Assembly: GCA_041530395.1 (NCBI GenBank)
Contig: CP136945.1
Coordinates: 1,922,001-1,986,000, forward strand
DNA length: 64,000 nt
Direction of reading: 5' to 3'
DNA from: Thermosynechococcaceae cyanobacterium Okahandja
GTDB lineage: Bacteria; Cyanobacteriota; Cyanobacteriia; Thermosynechococcales; Thermosynechococcaceae
Below, piece after piece: positions 27,479-37,320 of this stretch (the first letter of the stretch is position 1; each line of letters starts with the position of its first letter). The position numbers and the translations under genes are program-made. The notes below the pieces were generated by a model. That model made no database searches, was not told the origin of the DNA, and was given only the letters and a program-made list of their open reading frames with translations.

Positions 27479-29284
27479 AATTGCCCTCTTCCTTGTAGGG
27501 TAGAGTGTTCCGCCAGTTGCCAATAAAATCCATGTCCAGTATTTACGACAATATCGAGCAGCCCATCCTGCCAGAGTTGCAGCATTACCTGAAGCAAGCC
27601 TACCGGGCTGATTTCTGTGTGGGTTATTTTAACCTGCGGGGATGGCGACAAATTGATGCCGATATTGAGCAATTTGCGGGAGGCGAAGGGCAGGCTTGTC
27701 GATTGCTAGTGGGGATGTACCGGAACTCCGGCAAGCGTTGGCCATTGGCGTGGAACCAGAACGCATGGATCAGGGGCAGGCAATTCGGTTACAAACCTTG
27801 ATGGCTCAGGAGTTCCGTCAGCAACTCACCTATGGTGCGCCCAGTGTCGCTGATGAGGAGGGATTAAAGCGGTTGCAAGCCCAGTTACGAGCAGGTAAAC
27901 TTCGGGTCAAGTTATTTTTGCGGCATCCCCTCCATGCCAAGCTGTATTTGATTTATCGCCACGATCGCTTTTGCTTGGATATTACCGAGCAACTCGCAGA
28001 AATTATTGATGAAAGTTGGGCAGGGCGATCGCTCAAGCCCTATTTTGTGTACTTAAAAATGGCGTATCACCTGTCTCAGGAAGCGCGGGATGGGTTGAGC
28101 CAATATCGTGCCCCGGCCAGTTTTGGACTGTTACCGTTTCAGGAAGCGGCGGTGCAAATTGCAGCACACCATGTTAGCAAACGGAATGGGGTGATCATTG
28201 GGGATGTGGTGGGGCTGGGCAAAACCCTGGTGGGAACCGCGATCGCCCATCTGTGCGAGGAGGACTACGGCACCAGTACACTGATTATCTGCCCCAAGAA
28301 CCTAGTGAAAATGTGGCAGGAGTATATTGATCGCTATGGGTTGCGGGGAAAGGTTGTTCCTATTAGCCGGGTTGAGAAGGAATTGCCTAATGTGCCAGCG
28401 CGGTTTCGGTTGGTACTGATTGATGAAAGCCACAACCTGCGCAACCAAGAAGGCAAGCGGTATCAAGCAATTAAAGATTATATTGAGCAGAGTGGCAGTC
28501 GATGTATTTTACTCACGGCAACGCCCTATAACAAGACCTATCTGGACTTGTCGGCGCAGTTGCAGTTATTCTTGCGACCCGATGCCGATTTGGGCATTAA
28601 GCCAGAAGCGTATATCCACAGCATTCGCGGTGAGATGCAGTTTCGCCGCAGGCATAGCACGATTCCGGTGCGATCGCTCCTAGCCTTTGAGCAAAGTCCA
28701 GAGCCGGAGGATTGGCAGCAGTTGATGAGTCGCTACATGGTGCGGCGAACCCGCAGTTTTATCAAGAAAACCTATGCCAAACAAGACGGCGAACGGTATT
28801 ACTTGGAATTTGCCGATGGACGGCGCTCCTATTTTCCGGTGCGTCAGCCTCGGACGGTGCGGTTTACGATTGGGGAGCCGCAGACTGACCCCTATGCTCG
28901 GCTGTATAGCGATGAGGTAGTGGATGTCATCAACGCCCTCAATTTACCGCGCTACGGATTAGGTCTGTATCAAGATCCCAAACCCAAACAGCCTCCTACA
29001 GACGAAGAACAAAAACTGTTGGCCAATCTGTCCTATGCTGGGAAGCGGTTGATGGGGTTCTGCCGCACCAATTTGTTTAAGCGCTTGGAGAGTAGCGGGA
29101 TTGCCTTCCTCCAGTCGTTGGAGTGGCATATTCTGCGGAATTATGTGTATCTCCATGCGATCGCCCACGATCTTCCCCTACCGATTGGCACCCAATATGC
29201 CGCGTTACTGGGCGAAGTGGAGAGCGATGAAGACGAAGATTTGCTTGCTCCCCTCGATAATTTACCCTTGAGTCAAGAGGAAGA

Positions 29285-29381
29285 CCCTCATCCCCTAACC
29301 CCTTCTCCTAGGAAGGGAGAAGGGGAACTGGAATCTCTTGCTCCCCTCTCCCCGCTTGGGAGAGGGGCCGGGGGTGAGGGC
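29285..29381 (+). repeat. 97-bp double-hairpin repeat, copy A
   Basis: The unit starts ccctcatcccc and ends gggggtgagggc. It holds hairpin 1 (ccccttctcc / ggagaagggg), a short linker (aactggaatctcttgct) and hairpin 2 (cccctctcccc / gggagagggg). The two ends also pair (ccctca / tgaggg), giving a three-stem fold. It lies in the helicase gene between the two ATPase lobes and is read through in frame as a Pro/Gly-rich peptide. Confidence 0.9.
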
Positions 29382-29470
29382 AGTCTAGAAGCAGGGAAGC
29401 AAGAATTGTAAACTACCCTTTTCGGAGAGGGATTTAGGGTAAGGATCAGTGAGGGCAGGCATGAAGAAGA

Positions 29471-29567
29471 CCCTCATCCCCTAACCCCTTCTCCCTCCCT
29501 GGGAGAAGGGGAACTGGAATCTCTTGCTCCCCTCTCCCCGCTTGGGAGAGGAGCCGGGGGTGAGGGC
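29471..29567 (+). repeat. 97-bp double-hairpin repeat, copy B
   Basis: Same length as copy A and nearly identical. The main differences are the loop of hairpin 1 (ctccct instead of taggaa) and one base in hairpin 2. The 89 bases between A and B contain the stop codon at 29409-29411 and a degenerate 3' repeat half (ggagagggatttaggg). Helicase sequence resumes in the original frame at its right edge. Confidence 0.9.
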
Positions 29568-31055
29568 TATTTCGCGCAACGGGCAGCGGCAATCTATCGC
29601 TTATACCAAGAGCAATACCCGCATCAATTTAAGTGGATTCGTGCCAACCTATTTCGGCCAGAGTTACAGCAGCATCTTCAGGAAGATGCCACTGCGTTGA
29701 TGGGAATTTTGCAACGGGCGGGCAGTTGGCATCCCTCCACCGATACCAAGCTAGGGGCACTGGTGGCGTTATTACAGCAGCAACACCCGACGGATAAGGT
29801 GCTGATTTTCACGCAATTTGCTGATACGGCTCGGTATCTGGAAAAAGCACTGGCAGACCAGGGCATTCAGCAGGTGGGTTTGGCAACGGGGCAATCGGCT
29901 GACCCGACGGCTCTGGCTTGGCGATTTAGTCCGATCAGTAACGAAAAATCGATCCCAGCAGCCGAGCAATTGCGGGTGTTGGTGGCAACCGATGTGTTGA
30001 GTGAGGGACAAAATTTGCAAGATTGTGCCATTATTCTCAATTACGATTTGCCTTGGGCAATTATTCGGCTGATTCAGCGGGCAGGACGGGTCGATCGCAT
30101 CGGGCAGCAGGCAGAGGAGATTCTGTGCTATTCGTTTTTGCCTGCGGAGGGGGTGGAGCGGCTGATTAACTTGCGGGGACGGTTGCGCGATCGCCTCAAC
30201 GAAAATCAAGAAGTCGTGGGCACGGATGAAGCCTTTTTTGAGGATGAAGAAGCGCGGGAGATGCTGCTGAATCTTTACAACGAGCGATCGGGGGTGCTCG
30301 ATGAAGCCGATGAAGGGGAGGTGGATCTCACCTCGGAGGCATTGCAGATCTGGCAAAGTGCGATCGAGGCCAACCCTAACCTGAAAGGCATTATCGAAAA
30401 ATTGCCGGATGTGGTGTATTCCACACGGCAGCATGAACCCACAGGGGTTGATCCAGAAGGGGTGTTGGTATATCTACGGACGGGTAGCGGCACGGATGCG
30501 TTGGCTTGGATAGATAAGGATGGCAACAGTGTGACCCAATCGCAGATGCGAATTTTACGCATGGCACGATGCAGCATCAATACCCCTGCCTTACCGCGTC
30601 ATCCCCAGCATCATCAACTGGTGGCACGGGGGGCGGAACTGATCGCGGAGCAAACGAAAACGGTGGCGGGCACGTTGGGCAATAGGCGTAGTGCAGCGGC
30701 TCGGACGTACGATCGCCTCATGGCCTACACCCAACATGTCCGTGAAACTACCCCCTTATTGGCAGTAGGAACAGAATGGGAAAACTTGGAGCGAGCGATC
30801 GAAGAAATCAACCAGTATCCCCTGAAGCAGAATGCGATCGCCCGCCTCAATCGAGAATTGAAAGCGGGCATCAGTGATGAGCAGTTGGCAAAACTGGTAA
30901 CGTTTCTGCGGGAGCATGATGCCCTATGTGTGATTAATCCAGAGGAACGGCGAGATGGTACACAGATTATCTGTTCAATGGGATTGTTTAGCGGCTAAAG
31001 TAGAGGCAGAGAGATAAAGTTTGTCTGGCTTTTGTACATTTAAGGGGGAGTTCTG

Positions 31056-31523
31056 ATGTCTCAACCTCAAGATTTGGCAGAACTCTACGAGCAGGATATT
31101 TTACGGTGGTCGGAAGATACGGTGGCTAAACTTAAGGCGCGAGACTTTGAGCATCTCGATCTTGAACACTTGATCGAAGAGGTAGAGGCGTTGGGAATTT
31201 CTCAAAAGAAGGAATTGACTAGCCGCCTGATCGTTTTATTAGAACATTTATTAAAACGGCTGTATGTGAATTTACCCCATGACTACAATGGCTGGGAGCG
31301 AACGATTCGGACTCAACGGGGGGAGTTAGAGGTTTTGTTGGATGCAGTCCCTAGCCTGACTGGTTATTGGGATGCCAGCTTTAACAAGGCTTGGCAAATT
31401 GCGCTAAAAAATGTACGCAAGGAATATCCCCAAGTTAATTTCCCAAATGAATGGCTACGCGATCGCGCCATTGAGCCAATGTTGAATCATGATTTTTGGG
31501 TGGAATCAATTGAGGAGAAGTGA
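31056..31523 (+). CDS. DUF29 family protein, first island copy
   Basis: A 155-residue DUF29 protein. It has AELYEQDILRWSEDTVAKLKARDFEHLDLEHLIEEVEALG at the N-terminus, then a helical LIVLLEHLLKRLY segment. The C-terminal FPNEWLRDRAIEPML part resembles other DUF29 members. It starts with a ggggag ribosome-binding site and ends one base before the next DUF29 gene, so the two form an operon. Function is unknown. The pair are diverged rather than a recent duplication. Confidence 0.85.
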   Translation: MSQPQDLAELYEQDILRWSEDTVAKLKARDFEHLDLEHLIEEVEALGISQKKELTSRLIVLLEHLLKRLYVNLPHDYNGWERTIRTQRGELEVLLDAVPSLTGYWDASFNKAWQIALKNVRKEYPQVNFPNEWLRDRAIEPMLNHDFWVESIEEK

Positions 31524-31524
31524 A

Positions 31525-31959
31525 ATGCTATCCAATCTCTATGAAACTGATTTTTATGCTTGGACATTAGCGCAGGCAAAGTTGCTTAAAGAAAGAGATT
31601 TTGAGCATCTCGATATTCCCAACTTGGTCGAGGAAATTGAGTCCTTGGGAAAGCAACAGCGTCAGGAACTCAGAAACCGATTAGGTGTTTTGATCGGGCA
31701 CTTATTGAAGTGGGATTACCAGCCCGAAAAGCGTAGTAAAAGCTGGCGAGTGACGATTCGTGAGCAACGGCGAGAAATTTTGCAACTCCTGAAGGAAAAC
31801 CCTAGCCTCAAGCCTTATTTGGAAGAGGCGATCGCCCCTGCCCACGAATCTGGCTTGGACTTAGTAGTCAAGGAAACTCCTTTAGATTATGGAGATCTGC
31901 CCGAAAATTGCCCCTATACACCCGAGCAACTGTTTGATCCTAACTTTCCCACCAATTGA
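31525..31959 (+). CDS. DUF29 family protein, second island copy
   Basis: A 144-residue DUF29 protein beginning MLSNLYETDFYAWTLAQAKLLKERDF and carrying LDIPNLVEEIESLG and LIGHLLKWDY. The ATG at 31525 is preceded by gaggag inside the end of the previous gene. It is followed by the DUF433-DUF5615 pair on the same strand. It is the third DUF29 gene in the window, counting the copy at 3724. Confidence 0.85.
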   Translation: MLSNLYETDFYAWTLAQAKLLKERDFEHLDIPNLVEEIESLGKQQRQELRNRLGVLIGHLLKWDYQPEKRSKSWRVTIREQRREILQLLKENPSLKPYLEEAIAPAHESGLDLVVKETPLDYGDLPENCPYTPEQLFDPNFPTN

Positions 31960-32586: not shown

Positions 32587-35500
32587 ATGCTCGACCGCCC
32601 ACGCGCCCAAAAGTATCTCCAGACGTTTGATTTTGAGTCTCTGTTCATTGAAGAACTAGGCTGGGATACGGTCGATCGCGTCACCCTTCCGTTTGAGATT
32701 GACGATCGCTATTTTGAGGTGATTGCTATTGCTCAAAAGCGCGGCTTTATTGTCTATCAATGCATCACCCCAGAAATTCCGGCTCGGCCAATTCGGATCA
32801 AGCTCGATCGCCAACTGACGGACTACAGCAAATTCCACCTGTTGGTCTTTGGGGATGAGGGCAAGACGCAACAGGAATGGCTGTGGTTGAAGCCAGAAGT
32901 TAAGCAAGTTAAAAGTAAAAAGGCAAAAGGTAAAAGTAAAGGGCAGGTGACATCAACTAGGGCGGTGCGATCGCACTCCTATCAGGTTGGCCAGAATCCG
33001 GAGGCGTTGTTGCAAAAGCTGGAGGCATTGCTCGTGGAATTTAAGGAAGAGCAGAGCCTGACCCATGTGGATGTGGCTCAAAAGGTGAAGCAAGGCTTTG
33101 ATGTTGAGCGGGTTACGAAGCAATTTTTCCAAGATTTTGAAGGGTTACACCAAGCATTTTGTTTAGAGATTGAGGGGATTGATTCAGAGAGCGATCGCCG
33201 TTGGTATGCCTCGGTTTTGCTCAATCGATTAATGTTTGTTTATTTCTTGCAGCGCCGCTATTTTTTGGACAATGGTGATGCGTTGTATTTGCAAAATAAA
33301 TTGCGGCTATGTCAACAGGAAGGGCGCAGTTTTTATGAATTTCTCAAGGATTTATTTTTTGTAGGTTTTGCGGAACCGGAGTACCAGCGTGAGCCTGCCA
33401 TTCAACGTCGTATCGGGAAGATTTGTTATCTCAATGGTGGGTTATTCCTTCGGCATCCAATCGAGCAGAAGTATCCTGATATTCAAATTAGCGATCGCGC
33501 CTTTGTTCAAGTGTTTGAATTGTTCTCGCGTTATTCTTGGCACTTGGACGATCGCCCGGACAAAGACCCTCTGGAAATCAACCCGGATGTACTGGGCTAC
33601 ATTTTTGAGAAATACATTAACCAGAAAGAATTTGGTGCCTATTATACTCGTCCAGAAATTACCGAATACCTGTGCGATCGCACGATTAACAAACTGATGC
33701 TGGAGCGTCTTACCCCTCCTTCTGCAACTTCTGGGAGAGAAACTCTTACTCCCCTCTCCCAAGTGGGGAGAGGGGCCGGGGGTGAGGGTCTTTCATCGAT
33801 CCTCGCGAGTTTGGATATTGTCCAATGCGATCGCCTGCTGAACGAAATTTTGCCCACCCTAACCTTACTTGATCCGGCCTGTGGATCGGGAGCATTTTTG
33901 GTAGCGGCGATGAAAACCTTGATTAGCATCTACACTCAAGTTGTAGCCAGAGCCAAGTCATTATTAGAAGCCCCTCAAAGTCCCTCGCCCTTTTTGGGAG
34001 AGGAGTCGGATCAGCCGTCAGCGAACCCCCATCCCTCAAGTGCCTTCCCCCCCTCTCCCGTTCTGGGAGAGGGGCTGGGGGTGAGGGCAGAATCGCCCTC
34101 AGCGAACCCTCATCCCCTAACCCCTTCTCCCAAGGGGGGAGAAGGGGAACAAGAGTATTGGCAGATTTCGCCAGCATTGCGGCAACGGATGACCGAAGTT
34201 GCTCGTCAGTTTCGTAAAAAACCTGCATCTAGCGAAGCCATCCTGTGGCAAGCCTTACGAGGATGGAAATTAGGCGGGCGTAAATTCAAGCGACAACAGC
34301 CGATCGGTCCTTTTATTGTTGACTTTTTTTGCAGTGCTGAACGCCTAGTTGTCGAAGTTGATGGTTCAATTCACAACTCTCAGCAAGAAGCAGACCTTCA
34401 ACGTCAACAATTGCTTGAATCCCTAGGGCTGCACTTTGTTCGCATTGATAGCAACCTAGTTGAGAACGATCTACCTACAGCCCTTTCCCAAATTTCCGCT
34501 GCCTTCCTACCCCCCTCTCTCGCTTTGGGAGAAGAGCAGGAAGCGAGGGTCATTCCGCCCCCCTCTCCCTCCTTGGGAGAGGGGCTGGGGGTGAGGGCAA
34601 ATGAGAGCGATCGCCAAGACCTTGATTCGCTGCCCAGTGCTCCTCTCTCTTCTAGAGAGGGATTTAGGGTGAGGACAAATGAAAGCGCCCACCAAGCCCC
34701 TCATCCCCTAACTTTTACTCCTGGAGAAGGGGAACAAGAAATAGGGACATTACCCCCCTCTCCCGCTCTGGGAGAGGGGCCGGGGGTGAGGGAGAGAATC
34801 TCTCAATGGTTACAAGAAGCCGCCAAACATCCATCCCTAGACTACTACATCAAAAAGCGCATCATTACCGACAACCTCTATGGTGTGGACATCATGGAGG
34901 AAGCCACCGAAATTGCCAAATTGCGCCTATTTTTGGCCTTAGTCTCCTCAGCCAGAACAGTAGAAGACCTAGAACCGCTGCCGAACATTGATTTCAACAT
35001 CATGGCCGGAAACTCCCTAATTGGTTTAATTCGGGTGGATGCCAAAGGCTTCGATCGCCTTTCTGCCCGATCTAGGAAGGGGGTCGGGGGTCAGGAAATC
35101 TTGCAAGGCAATGTGCTACAGGGGTTAGCAGCCTCGGAGTATCAGCAAATCCTAGAGGATAAAAACCGCAGTATTGCGCTCTACAAAAAACACGCTTTCC
35201 AGCAAGCCGATTCCGAACTGCCCCAAGAAACTCGCCTGTTACAGTTGCGGGATCACATCAACAAACTAAATCAGACATCCCAAGTGAAGTTAAACCAGTT
35301 ATTGCTCGATGAATTTAGCCAGCGGTTGGGGATTCAATACGAACAAGCTCAACTCAACGGCAAACCCAAAAAACGCAACTTAACCCTCGCAGATATAGAA
35401 GCCCTAGAGCCGTTTCATTGGGGCTACCATTTCGATCGAGTGTTTGCGCGGGGCGGGTTTGATGCGATTATCACTAATCCACCGTGGGAAATTTTCAAAC

Positions 35501-37320
35501 CTCAAGCTAAAGAGTTTTTCGCAAAGTATAGCGATCTTGTAACCAAAAACAAGATGGATATCAAAACCCTTGAGAAGGAACAAAAAAAGCTATTACAAAA
35601 TCCAGAAATTGCTCAGGCTTGGTGTGAATACCAAAGTCAGTTTCCGTATGTTAGCGCCTATTTCCGTTCATCAGAACAGTATAGGAATCAAATTTCAATT
35701 GTTAATGGGAAGAAAGTTGGAACAGATATTAACCTCTACAAGTTGTTCTTAGAGCAATGTTTTAACTTGTTACGCCCCAGTGGCCGTTGTGGAATCATTA
35801 TTCCTTCGGGAATCTACACAGATTTAGGTGCGAAACAATTACGAGAGTTGCTGTTTTCCCAATCAGAGCTAGACACCTTATTATGTTTATCTAATGAGAA
35901 ATTTATTTTTGAAGGATTACATCACGCTTTTAAGTTTGTATTACTTACTTTTGAGAAGGGTAAACATACAGAATCTTTTAATACAGTGTTTCGGATTAAC
36001 CCTAGAGAAGCAATTAGATCTAATGAATTAGGGACATTCCTTTATGATACTAGTCAACAATTGCGATTACCTGTCTCCCTAGTTCGACAATTGTCACCCG
36101 ATTCTTTGTCGATCATGGAGTTTAAGCAGCCCATTGATATTGCTATCGCCCAAAAAATGCTGCAATTCCCCTTATTGGGCGAAAAAATTGACGGCAAGTG
36201 GAATCTCAAGCTTACCCGTGAATTTGACATGACCAATGACAGTCATCTGTTCAAAACAGAGCCAGGGCCGGGGCAGCTCCCCCTCTACGAAGGCAAGATG
36301 ATCCACCAGTTCACCCATCAGTGGGGGCAACCCAAGTATTGGCTAGATGAAGGGGAAGCTAAAGCAGAATTGCTATCATCCAGATTAAAGTCTATTAAAA
36401 AGTTAATTAAGACTTATGGCTTAAATAATGAAATCGATCCTAATGAAGTTTGCTTAGATTATCAAGCTTATAGACTTGCTTTTCGAGACGTGGCCGCAAG
36501 TACAAATGAGAGAACAGTAATCATGACTGTTTTACCACCAAAAGTGTTTTGTCCGCACACGATGTCATTAGAACAAGTCTATGAATCTAGAATTAAAAAT
36601 AACAAGATTGACGTTAACTTTCTATATCTAAGTAACAAGGAGCGACTATTCCTTTGTGCTGTTATGAACTCTTTTATAGTCGATGGCTGGCTGCGTCGCA
36701 GCATAACTTCACACGTTTCATTTTTCTTTGTCTATAATACTCCAGTTCCTCGACTGCAAGAAGGCGACAAATGGTTTGCTGAAATCGTAGAACGTGCGGC
36801 CAAACTCATCTGCACCACGCCGGAGTTTGAGGAGTTGTGGGCAGAGGTTTTCCCTCATCCCCTAACCCCTTCTCCCAAGGAGGGAGAAGGGGAACCGGAA
36901 TCTTTTGCCCCCCTCTCCCAAAAGGGGAGAGGGGCTGGGGGTGAGGGCTACGGTGTTACCAACGAGGAAGAGCGGGCGCAACTCCGTGCCGAACTGGATG
37001 GCATCATCGCCCACCTGTACGGTTTAACCGAAACCGAATTTGCCCATATCCTCAGCACCTTCCCCCTCGTCCCGGAAGAAACTAAACAAGCTGCACTCAA
37101 TGCTTATCGTGATGTTGATCGGGGGTTAATTCAAGTTTTCAAATCATGCTCTGGAAGAAATGGAAAAACGAAAAGTTCCCATTTCCTTTGTAGAAGCCGT
37201 CTTAGAAAATCCACAGCAAACTCTTCAACAAAACGAAGAGATCACCATTTATCAATCTCAAGTGGATTTTGGCGCAGGCAAGCTTTATTTACTTCGAGTC
37301 TTTGTCAACACCATCCTTGA
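32587..37320 (+). CDS. Eco57I-type DNA adenine methylase, interrupted in frame by repeats and a DUF559 nuclease domain
   Basis: A 1577-residue reading frame. Residues ~1-370 are the N-terminal region typical of large Eco57I/type-ISP-like methylases, ending FGAYYTRPEITEYLCD. The SAM motif LDPACGSGAFL is at 428-438 and the catalytic NPPW at 964-967. Between them lies a foreign block of about 270 residues (33973-34793) made of hairpin repeats and a DUF559 nuclease domain at ~523-640. Smaller repeat insertions lie at 33709-33789 and 36852-36948. From about residue 1516 the frame reads DUF4258 sequence out of register, so the natural C-terminus is lost. The gene sits beside the broken helicase, its expected defence partner. 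Whether the enlarged protein folds is unknown. Confidence 0.8.
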   Translation: MLDRPRAQKYLQTFDFESLFIEELGWDTVDRVTLPFEIDDRYFEVIAIAQKRGFIVYQCITPEIPARPIRIKLDRQLTDYSKFHLLVFGDEGKTQQEWLWLKPEVKQVKSKKAKGKSKGQVTSTRAVRSHSYQVGQNPEALLQKLEALLVEFKEEQSLTHVDVAQKVKQGFDVERVTKQFFQDFEGLHQAFCLEIEGIDSESDRRWYASVLLNRLMFVYFLQRRYFLDNGDALYLQNKLRLCQQEGRSFYEFLKDLFFVGFAEPEYQREPAIQRRIGKICYLNGGLFLRHPIEQKYPDIQISDRAFVQVFELFSRYSWHLDDRPDKDPLEINPDVLGYIFEKYINQKEFGAYYTRPEITEYLCDRTINKLMLERLTPPSATSGRETLTPLSQVGRGAGGEGLSSILASLDIVQCDRLLNEILPTLTLLDPACGSGAFLVAAMKTLISIYTQVVARAKSLLEAPQSPSPFLGEESDQPSANPHPSSAFPPSPVLGEGLGVRAESPSANPHPLTPSPKGGEGEQEYWQISPALRQRMTEVARQFRKKPASSEAILWQALRGWKLGGRKFKRQQPIGPFIVDFFCSAERLVVEVDGSIHNSQQEADLQRQQLLESLGLHFVRIDSNLVENDLPTALSQISAAFLPPSLALGEEQEARVIPPPSPSLGEGLGVRANESDRQDLDSLPSAPLSSREGFRVRTNESAHQAPHPLTFTPGEGEQEIGTLPPSPALGEGPGVRERISQWLQEAAKHPSLDYYIKKRIITDNLYGVDIMEEATEIAKLRLFLALVSSARTVEDLEPLPNIDFNIMAGNSLIGLIRVDAKGFDRLSARSRKGVGGQEILQGNVLQGLAASEYQQILEDKNRSIALYKKHAFQQADSELPQETRLLQLRDHINKLNQTSQVKLNQLLLDEFSQRLGIQYEQAQLNGKPKKRNLTLADIEALEPFHWGYHFDRVFARGGFDAIITNPPWEIFKPQAKEFFAKYSDLVTKNKMDIKTLEKEQKKLLQNPEIAQAWCEYQSQFPYVSAYFRSSEQYRNQISIVNGKKVGTDINLYKLFLEQCFNLLRPSGRCGIIIPSGIYTDLGAKQLRELLFSQSELDTLLCLSNEKFIFEGLHHAFKFVLLTFEKGKHTESFNTVFRINPREAIRSNELGTFLYDTSQQLRLPVSLVRQLSPDSLSIMEFKQPIDIAIAQKMLQFPLLGEKIDGKWNLKLTREFDMTNDSHLFKTEPGPGQLPLYEGKMIHQFTHQWGQPKYWLDEGEAKAELLSSRLKSIKKLIKTYGLNNEIDPNEVCLDYQAYRLAFRDVAASTNERTVIMTVLPPKVFCPHTMSLEQVYESRIKNNKIDVNFLYLSNKERLFLCAVMNSFIVDGWLRRSITSHVSFFFVYNTPVPRLQEGDKWFAEIVERAAKLICTTPEFEELWAEVFPHPLTPSPKEGEGEPESFAPLSQKGRGAGGEGYGVTNEEERAQLRAELDGIIAHLYGLTETEFAHILSTFPLVPEETKQAALNAYRDVDRGLIQVFKSCSGRNGKTKSSHFLCRSRLRKSTANSSTKRRDHHLSISSGFWRRQALFTSSLCQHHP
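33709..33789 (+). repeat. degenerate double-hairpin repeat in the methylase gene
   Basis: The right half matches the 97-bp units well: cccctctcccaagtggggagagggg, then ccgggggtgaggg. The left half is degenerate, with cttctgcaacttctgggagag in place of hairpin 1. It adds residues such as PLSQVGRGAGGEG just after the conserved YTRPEITEYL region and before the SAM motif, and keeps the frame. Confidence 0.75.
33973..34793 (+). mobile_element. composite repeat/DUF559 insertion inside the methylase gene
   Basis: About 820 bases of foreign sequence lie between methylase codons for VVARAKSLLEA and ERISQWLQEAAKHP. The block contains hairpin-2-type halves at about 34050-34089, 34558-34598 and 34752-34792, a complete DUF559-carrying unit (34107-34551), and degenerate halves near 33973-34008, 34639-34675 and 34697-34735. 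No stop codon occurs in the host frame, so the whole block is translated into the methylase as Pro/Gly/Glu-rich linkers around a nuclease domain. The arrangement suggests repeated insertion of one family at the same spot. Confidence 0.75.
34107..34551 (+). mobile_element. DUF559-carrying double-hairpin element
   Basis: The left end is the repeat start ccctcatcccc plus hairpin 1 ending gagaaggggaac (34107-34150). The right end is hairpin 2 plus the terminal segment (cccctctctcgctttgggagaagagc to gcgagggtc, ending 34551). Between them, in place of the ~17-base linker of the 97-bp units, is a DUF559 coding segment (about 34153-34506). That segment has SEAILWQALRGWKLGGRKFKRQ, GPFIVDFFCS, LVVEVDGSIH and LGLHFVRI, the Vsr-like restriction-endonuclease-fold core with its acidic residues. 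An internal ATG at 34189 could allow separate translation. The element length is 445 bases, the same remainder modulo 3 as 97. Confidence 0.75.
36852..36948 (+). repeat. 97-bp double-hairpin repeat in the methylase 3' region
   Basis: This unit has the same length and ends as the two units in the helicase gene. Its loops and linker differ (caagga in hairpin 1, aaaa in hairpin 2, aaccggaatcttttgcc linker). It separates FEELWAEVF from YGVTNEEERAQLRAELDGIIAHLYGL, which are adjacent in ordinary family members. The host frame is kept. Confidence 0.9.

What the first reader, a model, noticed from the sequence alone, without database searches (positions are those of the whole stretch)
34107..34551. 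A DUF559 nuclease sits inside a double-hairpin repeat exactly where the short 97-bp copies have a linker
The 97-bp units (29285-29381, 29471-29567, 36852-36948) are: end, hairpin 1, ~17-base linker, hairpin 2, end. The 445-bp element at 34107-34551 has the same left end and hairpin 1, the same type of hairpin 2 and right end, but a DUF559 (Vsr-like) coding segment replaces the linker. This is the relation expected between an autonomous element and its internally deleted derivatives. It suggests that DUF559 nucleases spread this palindromic repeat, much as RAYT transposases are linked to REP sequences. Ends and hairpins are seen directly; mobilisation is inference.
Basis: partly seen in the sequence, partly recalled or inferred. 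Interest (0 to 1): 0.88.

Follow-up and report, generated by a model that had tools for sequence, protein, structure and literature searches.

The report
Nuclease gene inside a mobile palindrome
A small bacterial nuclease gene of unknown role, found in many phyla (DUF559; ycjD in E. coli), is usually bordered by one kind of hairpin-forming repeat whose copy number tracks the gene across genomes, so gene and repeats look like the full and stripped-down forms of one jumping DNA element.

Summary
The pattern is general. In 80 loci from many phyla, strict pyrimidine-arm hairpins lie within 300 bp of 52 of 68 DUF559 domains with full flanks, against 12 of 385 other ORFs there. Repeat number tracks DUF559: in 150 alphaproteobacterial genomes the median is 30 in 53 with a strong match, 1 in 16 with a weak one, 0 in 81 without; 58 cyanobacteria agree more weakly. 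One genome has two 490-bp copies, 93.5% identical, at unrelated sites, bounded by 26-bp hairpin-containing inverted repeats and encoding only DUF559. One methylase loop is empty in some species, holds repeat-derived sequence in others, DUF559 in two. E. coli ycjD belongs here. Best reading: DUF559 plus palindromes is an autonomous mobile element and the 97-bp units its non-autonomous derivatives, working like RAYT/REPIN but with a Vsr/EDxHD-type nuclease. Catalysis and movement are inferred. My searches listed no paper linking DUF559 to palindromic repeats; the library lacks most subscription journals and preprints.

The parts
34107..34148 (+). left half of the DUF559 element: outer tag CCCTCATCCCCTAA (34107-34120) plus hairpin 1 (34121-34147)
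   Evidence: family D3; folds, z -2.9
34186..34500 (+). DUF559 (PF04480) Vsr/EDxHD-like nuclease domain; the columns invariant in 32 aligned relatives (E16, D45, E56, D58, H62, R85 among them, numbered in L001) are present
34505..34549 (+). right half (hairpin 2 + tag) of the DUF559 element, eroded
   Evidence: 64% to reference; z 0.43, does not fold
34557..34598 (+). intact hairpin 2 + right tag directly after the eroded one
34698..34792 (+). degenerate short double-hairpin unit next to the DUF559 element
   Evidence: 1956698-1956792, 71%
34045..34088 (+). hairpin 2 + right tag upstream of the element
33739..33788 (+). hairpin 2 + right tag in the methylase ORF
29285..29381 (+). 97-bp short unit (tag, hairpin, 17-nt linker, hairpin, tag)
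29471..29567 (+). 97-bp short unit
36852..36948 (+). 97-bp short unit, in frame in the methylase ORF
32587..37320 (+). host gene: Eco57I-type DNA methylase ORF (1577 aa) carrying the DUF559 element in frame in the loop between CGSGAF and YGVDI
27696..30998 (+). SNF2-type helicase reading frame carrying two 97-bp units in frame, with one in-frame stop (29409-29411) between them

Best explanation
The DUF559 gene and its two palindromic borders form one autonomous mobile element of about 0.45-0.5 kb whose ends are tagged hairpins in inverted orientation. The 97-bp double hairpins are its non-autonomous (MITE- or REPIN-like) derivatives, in which the two ends lie back to back. Shown here: a conserved class of hairpin beside DUF559 across many phyla; dispersed copies whose homology stops at or within about 10 bp of the hairpin ends; copy-number coupling to DUF559; occupied, repeat-only and empty states of one site. 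Inferred: the DUF559 protein, a Vsr/EDxHD-type PD-(D/E)XK nuclease, recognises the tagged hairpin (extruded in single-stranded DNA, or as a cruciform), nicks or cuts at the ends, and new copies arise by strand transfer or break repair, acting on the gene-less units in trans. Because the palindromes read as stop-free peptide in suitable frames (PHPLTPSP..GEGE / APLS..GRGAGGEG), the element can also survive in frame inside protein genes, above all restriction-modification genes.
For: Strict pyrimidine-left-arm hairpins: 2.7 and 4.0 per kb in the 125 bp up- and downstream of DUF559, 2.6 and 1.6 per kb at 125-250 bp, 0-0.12 per kb beyond 500 bp; the purine-left-arm class 0-0.1 per kb in every bin (80 loci). 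52/68 DUF559 loci vs 12/385 other ORFs of the same loci; Uma2 0/30 within 300 bp; HNH 3/30 and Uma2 3/30 anywhere in the ~3 kb locus vs DUF559 27/33; IS200/RAYT-type Y1_Tnp 3/30, dissimilar hairpins. Genome level: 150 alphaproteobacterial genomes, median 30 (53 with DUF559 >=70 bits) vs 0 (81 without), p 1e-16, Spearman with DUF559 copies 0.69, 0.60 within carriers, p 1e-10 in the 3.0-5.2 Mb band; 58 cyanobacteria p 1e-4, Spearman 0.38 with DUF559 copies but 0.11 with Y1_Tnp copies. Mobility: G355 L316/L317, 490 bp, 93.5% identical, 200-bp outer flanks 53 and 55%, bounded by a 26-bp inverted repeat containing the hairpin, no transposase family in the four flanking ORFs scanned. Five copies 83-90% identical in G025. 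Methylase site: 2 with DUF559, 2 with repeat-derived peptide only, 9 empty of 13 scored; congeners L167 filled vs L168 empty. Fold: Foldseek best 3hrl and homing endonuclease I-Bth0305I; Vsr at ranks 5-6.
Against: No movement, excision or cleavage was observed. No target-site duplication was seen, and no empty site was resolved to the base (the local sequence also differs). In the G355 pair about 8-10 bp beyond the right end are shared as well. Seven of 81 DUF559-less alphaproteobacterial genomes have 10 or more pattern matches, and 5 of 53 carriers have fewer than 3; 9 of 40 further DUF559 genomes have none of the pattern and 4 have fewer than the control. The gene often sits beside or between doublets rather than inside one. 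Some G025 copies are nested in a larger repeat with its own inverted ends, so another transposase may have moved those, and two of the five carry a stop in DUF559. The window's copies and the L002 copies cluster at two R-M islands, so part of the pattern here may be imported. Species within an order are related, so the p values overstate independence. 11 of 113 loci show no hairpin even at the loosest script setting, though several of these show one by eye.
Confidence: 0.72

Rival explanations
1. Homing into repeats: the palindromes are an independent REP/MITE family and DUF559 is a homing endonuclease that cuts within them and is copied into the cut by gene conversion, so the repeats are its landing sites, not its ends.
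For: Nearest solved relatives include the homing endonuclease I-Bth0305I. DUF559 sits inside probable inteins in a methylase gene (L004, L034; the Intein_splicing match is below cut-off); PMC9403480 (passage read) reports, under intein-containing genes, a DUF559 gene of the EDxHD family. A gene replacing the linker of a double hairpin is what an occupied target would look like.
Against: It does not explain why palindrome copy number rises with DUF559 or why two 490-bp copies share ends but no flanks. An independent repeat family should have its own enzyme; Y1_Tnp does not correlate.
Confidence: 0.15
2. Passive association: other enzymes spread the palindromes, and DUF559 genes (and R-M genes) accumulate near them because such regions are recombination-prone or horizontally transferred.
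For: In the window genome the units cluster at two R-M islands. In G025 some copies lie inside a larger repeat. In E. coli, classical REP/BIME units sit at or beside two of the same intergenic sites.
Against: Uma2, HNH and other ORFs in the same genomes or loci mostly lack the hairpins. The hairpins concentrate within 250 bp. Copy-number coupling appears in two distant groups.
Confidence: 0.08
3. DUF559 is a working restriction or repair domain of the host methylase or R-M protein, and the repeats are incidental linkers.
For: 13 of 21 scanned long frames carrying DUF559 match a restriction or methylase family above cut-off, plus 2 with DUF1156. A DUF559 protein (VsrA) of Caulobacter causes DNA damage signalling when a methylase is missing (PMC12907096, passages read).
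Against: Frames of 300 aa or more are 17/33 in the cyanobacterial set but only 12/80 in the wide set. Hosts also include UvrC, SpoU and a glutamine amidotransferase frame. Homologous methylases lack it.
Confidence: 0.05

Closest known systems
REPtron / RAYT (TnpAREP) with REP, BIME and REPIN
   Same: Small tagged palindromes, paired in inverted orientation, dispersed through the genome; a nuclease gene beside them; repeat abundance tracks the gene (definitions read in PMC8266576 introduction, and PMC3116915 passages).
   Different: The enzyme is DUF559, a PD-(D/E)XK Vsr-like fold, not HUH/Y1. Tags are C-rich (CCCTCAYCCCC, CCCCTAAAT), not GTAG or CGTC. DUF559 occurs in up to 8 copies per genome (G347) and in dispersed similar copies, whereas the two papers describe TnpAREP/RAYT as mostly single-copy with no evidence of mobility.
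Insertion sequences and MITEs
   Same: Terminal inverted repeats, one gene, short gene-less derivatives, dispersed copies.
   Different: No DDE, HUH, serine or tyrosine recombinase inside the element; the only protein domain found is the ~105-residue nuclease; each end is itself a hairpin; no target-site duplication seen.
EDxHD / Vsr-like homing endonucleases (I-Bth0305I)
   Same: Fold and profile similarity; probable intein-borne members exist (L004, L034).
   Different: The other loci examined are not in recognised introns or inteins, and most are bordered by multi-copy palindromes.
E. coli YcjD
   Same: RefSeq calls it a DUF559 domain protein and it was found by tblastn from L001 (47%); a tagged hairpin lies between ycjD and fabI. 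PMC1189080 lists YcjD as a previously identified PD-(D/E)XK member (passages read).
   Different: No repeat association is described in the passages I read.
Rickettsia palindromic elements (RPE)
   Same: Short palindromic repeats tolerated in frame inside protein genes (recalled; only search listings seen).
   Different: No gene-bearing autonomous form; unrelated sequence (recalled).

Membership tests
REPtron (RAYT + REP/REPIN) | HUH/Y1 TnpAREP nuclease gene | tested here: not met
   Gene is DUF559, PD-(D/E)XK Vsr-like fold
REPtron (RAYT + REP/REPIN) | palindrome preceded by GTAG or CGTC tag | tested here: not met
   Tags read from the listed sequences are C-rich (CCCTCAYCCCC, CCCCTAAAT); no systematic GTAG/CGTC count was run
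REPtron (RAYT + REP/REPIN) | inverted doublets of the palindrome | tested here: met
   '><' is the commonest neighbouring pair, 31 cases, spacing 9-102 nt, against 14 '<>', 12 '>>', 7 '<<'; 97-bp units fold as a three-way junction
REPtron (RAYT + REP/REPIN) | repeat abundance correlates with presence of the gene | tested here: met
REPtron (RAYT + REP/REPIN) | gene mostly single-copy and not mobile | tested here: not met
   up to 8 full copies in one genome (G347); dispersed similar copies
Insertion sequence with MITE derivatives | terminal inverted repeats bordering the gene | tested here: met
   71/132 vs 4/382 controls; mismatched-locus pairs 18/396; 26-bp inverted repeat in the G355 pair
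Insertion sequence with MITE derivatives | copies at unrelated sites with sharp homology limits | tested here: met
   G355 pair: sharp at the left end, 8-10 bp beyond the right end; only this pair is clean, G025 copies less so
Insertion sequence with MITE derivatives | target-site duplication or defined target | tested here: inconclusive
   none seen in the G355 pair; filled vs empty pair too diverged
Insertion sequence with MITE derivatives | transposase shown to move the element | not testable with these tools
   needs experiment
EDxHD / Vsr-like homing endonuclease | EDxHD/Vsr-like fold and invariant catalytic positions | tested here: met
   Foldseek 3r3p E 3.5e-4 (rank 2), 1cw0 1.5e-2 (rank 5, after two mitoribosomal chains); hmmsearch 3r3p 3.7e-5; invariant E, D, E, D, H in A1 and A2, their catalytic role recalled
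EDxHD / Vsr-like homing endonuclease | housed in intron or intein, cuts the empty allele of its host gene | tested here: inconclusive
   probable inteins in 2 loci (L004, L034); others not examined for introns by a dedicated search; cutting not testable
DUF559 (PF04480) | match over the curated cut-off | tested here: met
   94.4 bits vs 20.6

The most novel reading that the evidence does not exclude
DUF559 defines a new superfamily of bacterial transposable elements, among the smallest autonomous ones (about 0.45-0.5 kb; the comparison is recalled), whose sole enzyme is a Vsr/EDxHD-type nuclease acting on hairpin ends. It is present from cyanobacteria to candidate-phyla bacteria and E. coli, it is the source of a large class of GC-rich palindromic repeats whose enzyme has not been identified, and it can persist in frame inside restriction-modification proteins.
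Probability: 0.5. Interest if true: 0.95.

Novelty: new variant of a known kind. Interest (0 to 1): 0.87.

Why it matters
Palindromic repeats are common in bacterial genomes, and outside the RAYT/REP systems the agent that spreads them is often not known. [quoted passage not shown] If DUF559 is such a protein, an uncharacterised domain found in many phyla, including an E. coli K-12 y-gene, gains a testable role. A REP-like system would have arisen with an unrelated nuclease, and low-complexity PLTPSP/GEGE/GRGAGGEG stretches inside proteins such as the window methylase are explained as insertions.

Tried and rejected
Considered and set aside: chance hairpins in GC-rich flanks (purine-left-arm class 0-0.1 per kb; backwards-read pattern 0 in 57 of 58 genomes); intergenic position alone (other ORFs in the same loci 12/385); RAYT/IS200 as hidden driver (no correlation); ordinary R-M domain (hosts and homologues vary). 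First hairpin scoring by percentile was too loose for short palindromes and was replaced by class-based counts. A test that the outer flank of the nearest hairpin is more pyrimidine-rich than the inner flank is purine-rich failed (outer higher in 53 of 154, equal in 19), because the nearest hairpin is often the inner half of a doublet; orientation counts show both >gene< and <gene> arrangements, and no tagged hairpin by that rule in 26 of 113 loci. The empty-site test for the lone unit at 1750270 gave mainly the right-hand gene in congeners, with no resolvable boundary. E. coli zntA-tusA polymorphism proved to be a classical BIME beside a hairpin present in all four strains aligned, not the hairpin itself; at ypfG-tkt one strain has the hairpin and two have a BIME instead. 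E. coli counts (25 listed rows with the ycjD-side copy, median 16 places; 15 rows without, median 3) are confounded by phylogroup and rest on 40 listed rows of 5366 records. The PF04480 genome search did not ring in its own E. coli control genome, though many E. coli strains carry ycjD; I do not know which strain that control is, so the search may also miss members elsewhere. Rows dropped: L005 (different endonuclease) from all flank counts; L057, L061 and L111 as duplicates or near-duplicates only (keep L061 and L111, which repeat L014 and L018 of the other set); L290, L307, L322 and L324; loci with short flanks. One search's 40 loci include three already seen (L290, L307, L324). Of 30 methylase loci fetched 25 were examined.
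Full report
1. The observation. Folded as single-stranded DNA, each forms a three-way junction whose outer stem is made by the two tags, with z of -5.0, -4.2 and -4.8. The unit at 34107-34551 has the same tag and hairpin 1, then DUF559 (PF04480, 94.4 bits, domain 34186-34500). Its right half is only 64% like the reference and does not fold; an intact right half follows at 34557-34598. All this is in frame inside a 1577-aa Eco57I-type methylase ORF, a context the finding does not mention.

2. The same genome. The genome (2.8 Mb, one contig) has five DUF559 matches. One (L002) is a second in-frame copy in a DUF1156 gene, bordered by the same two halves. One (L004) lies inside what looks like an intein in a methylase. 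One (L001) is stand-alone, with related hairpins after it. One (L005) is a weak match to what looks like a different endonuclease. With a 118-base query the unit matches at four places: around the window element, around L002, about 5 kb from L004, and as one lone intergenic unit. A second query gave three weaker partial copies, one about 0.5 kb after L001. So part of the local picture may be imported R-M islands.

3. DUF559 flanks in general. They come from cyanobacteria, Bacteroidota, Chloroflexota, Proteobacteria, Planctomycetes, candidate phyla and others. The same class of hairpin recurs, with a pyrimidine-rich left arm and purine-rich right arm, for example CCCCTCTCCC..GGGAGAGGGG, CCTCCCC..GGGGAGG or TCCCCCATTCTGGGGGA. 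In the 80 loci the density is 2.7 and 4.0 per kb in the 125 bp up- and downstream of the domain, 2.6 and 1.6 per kb at 125-250 bp, 0.46 and 0.16 at 250-500 bp, and 0 to 0.12 per kb beyond; the mirrored purine-left class is 0 to 0.1 per kb in every bin. With the strict rule 57 of 80 and 25 of 33 loci have one within 300 bp, and 26 and 11 on both sides; with an intermediate rule 91 of 113 within 350 bp, against 4 of 113 for the purine-left class; with the loosest 102 of 113. Several of the rest show a shorter palindrome by eye. Two loci occur in both sets.

4. Controls. In the same 80 loci, 52 of 68 DUF559 domains with full flanks have a strict hairpin within 300 bp, against 12 of 385 other ORFs and 4 of 139 short ORFs. 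Uma2 genes, another PD-(D/E)XK-type family (recalled), of the same 58 genomes: 0 of 30 within 300 bp and 3 of 30 anywhere in the locus. HNH: 3 of 30 anywhere in about 3.1 kb, against 27 of 33 DUF559 loci. Y1_Tnp: 3 of 30 (within 300 bp, or anywhere in shorter loci), with unlike hairpins. Inverted similarity between the two flanks (score 16 or more): 71 of 132 DUF559 loci, 4 of 382 control ORFs, 18 of 396 flank pairs taken from different DUF559 loci; direct similarity 49, 10 and 14, as expected of palindromes. A further 40 loci, chosen from genomes with several DUF559 copies and including three already seen, gave 29 of 40 by the strict rule; of the 11 misses, seven (five G025 copies and two from G021) have TCCCCC-type ends visible in the alignment.

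5. Genome level. In 58 genomes, the window's relatives, the pattern CCCCTYYYCCN{2,12}GGRRRAGGGG is commoner in the 33 with a full DUF559 than in the 25 without (Mann-Whitney p 1e-4; at least two copies in 26/33 vs 7/25); Spearman with DUF559 copies is 0.38. Exceptions without a full gene are G018 (106 copies), G020 (37 copies, 82% complete), G030 (14), G046 (9) and G042 (6). G018 keeps a broken DUF559 between inverted tags of another hairpin subtype, seen by eye. In 150 genomes of an alphaproteobacterial order the pattern CCCYCYCCN{2,14}GGRGRGGG has median 30 in 53 genomes with DUF559 at 70 bits or more, 1 in 16 with a weaker match, and 0 in 81 without; p 1e-16 for the first against the last, and 1e-10 in the 3.0-5.2 Mb size band; Spearman with copy number 0.69, and 0.60 among carriers. 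Seven of the 81 have ten or more copies. In 40 further DUF559-bearing genomes (of the 80 loci) there were 1903 matches against 53 for the backwards-read control; 31 of 40 had any match, and four had fewer than their control. Y1_Tnp copies do not predict the repeats in the 58 (rho 0.11). Relatedness among genomes is not corrected for.

6. Mobility. In G355 two 490-bp elements are 93.5% identical while 200-bp flanks on either side are 53 and 55% alike, that is, unrelated. Both are bounded by AACCTCCCCCTYGAGGGGAGGTCGAA in inverted orientation, which contains the hairpin, and DUF559 is the only family found inside. Homology stops at the left end and runs about 8-10 bp past the right end. Flanking ORFs are SelR, hydantoinase B, aconitase-C and diaminopimelate epimerase families. 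In G025 five dispersed copies are 83-90% identical, two with a stop in the gene; L294 shares little outside the hairpin ends, while others are nested in a larger repeat with its own inverted ends. I saw no target-site duplication.

7. One site in several states. The window element sits in the methylase loop between CGSGAF and YGVDI. Of 25 homologous loci examined (30 were fetched), 13 gave both motifs: two with DUF559 (own and G047), two with repeat-derived peptide only (G143, which reads like a complete short unit; G200, a remnant), nine empty with 59-67 residues; 12 could not be scored by the rule. G047 and G063 are the same genus, 79-93% alike in the five aligned pieces, one filled and one empty; the local sequence also differs, so the boundary is not fixed to the base.

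8. Host genes. Frames of 300 aa or more around DUF559: 17 of 33 (cyanobacterial set) and 12 of 80 (wide set, one shared with the first). Pfam on 21 such frames: 13 with restriction or methylase families above cut-off (Eco57I, Type ISP, HsdR, HsdM/N6_Mtase, MmeI, N6_N4_Mtase), 2 with DUF1156, 1 with such a family below cut-off only, 3 others (UvrC, SpoU, GATase_5), 2 with nothing further.

9. E. coli and plasmids. tblastn found DUF559 in 46 plasmid-collection records and 3 phage records. All eight regions I fetched (two Picosynechococcus, three Azospirillum of which two are nearly identical, Sinorhizobium, E. coli, Neisseria gonorrhoeae) show the hairpins on at least one side of the gene, part by script and part by eye. 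The E. coli gene is ycjD, between sapF and fabI; 3362 of 5426 genomes hold at least 80% of the 2.5-kb query. One strain checked without it carries a multidrug-efflux operon there (PMC12817139 passages, call it eef). The laboratory strain EPI300 has a tagged hairpin after ycjD. The hairpin query matches in 5349 genomes, at a median of 14 places; in the 40 listed rows, 25 with the ycjD-side copy have median 16 places and 15 without have median 3, confounded by phylogroup.

10. The protein. AlphaFold2 model of the window domain: pLDDT 91.8. Best structural neighbours are 3hrl (N. gonorrhoeae endonuclease-like protein) and the homing endonuclease I-Bth0305I; two mitoribosomal chains come next and Vsr at ranks 5-6. 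Sequence search agrees for the first two. Positions E, D, E, D and H, the likely active site (recalled for PD-(D/E)XK/EDxHD enzymes), are invariant in 32 and 40 aligned members.

11. Mechanism. Shown: a gene plus two hairpin ends forms a unit that occurs at unrelated sites, and gene-less double ends rise with the gene. Inferred: DUF559 recognises tagged hairpins and cuts there. A small nuclease with a Vsr-like fold, which acts on distorted DNA (recalled for Vsr), suits extruded hairpins; strand transfer or break repair would complete the move. Homing into pre-existing palindromes is the main rival and could be the ancestral mode.

12. Literature. Searches with DUF559 (14 papers), ycjD (8), EDxHD/I-Bth0305I/Vsr-like endonuclease (14) and combinations with REP, RAYT, palindromic, MITE and related words (the larger ones show only the top of the list) listed no paper joining DUF559 to palindromic repeats, judged from listings and the passages read in six papers (PMC12907096, PMC9403480, PMC9845703, PMC1189080, PMC12817139, PMC3733652). 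PMC8266576 (abstract and introduction) and PMC3116915 (passages) were read for definitions. The library lacks most subscription journals and bioRxiv preprints, so prior description cannot be excluded.

Noticed in passing
window 29199-29747: The SNF2-type helicase frame carries two 97-bp units in frame and is interrupted by one stop (29409-29411) between them; the same frame is open again from there into the downstream ORF ending at 30998.
   Followed up: partly
L004 1501-1812 and L034 1501-1815 (reverse), inside DNA methylase frames: DUF559 embedded in a probable intein directly before the methylase motif CGSGTTG; Pfam Intein_splicing match (L034) is below cut-off.
   Followed up: partly
L118 1567-4203 (Ignavibacteria), L082 5944-7287, L067 2236-3675: DUF559 in frame within or joined to UvrC, a SpoU rRNA methylase and a glutamine amidotransferase frame.
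   Followed up: no
L290-L292, L307, L308 (G025, G021): Several DUF559 elements are nested in a larger repeat whose ends read roughly AGTGCAGGACAAAACT; possibly a MITE of another insertion sequence.
   Followed up: no
L039 about 1486-1622: The lone intergenic 97-bp unit is itself enclosed by an inverted repeat GTAACTACTCAG..CTGAGTAGTTAC.
   Followed up: no
L282, L287-L289 (E. coli zntA-tusA): A pyrimidine-arm hairpin present in all four strains aligned has a classical REP/BIME beside it in two of them; 822 of 5426 genomes cover at least 80% of the query from a strain that has it.
   Followed up: partly
L243 after the DUF559 domain (Neisseria gonorrhoeae): Regular tandem series of two alternating hairpins with about 281-bp period downstream of the DUF559 gene.
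   Followed up: no
window 31056-31959: Two tandem related small ORFs (155 and 156 aa, resembling DUF29 by recall) with a 75% identical 67-nt repeat.
   Followed up: no
G347: One alphaproteobacterial genome of 3.2 Mb carries eight DUF559 copies and 103 pattern matches.
   Followed up: partly
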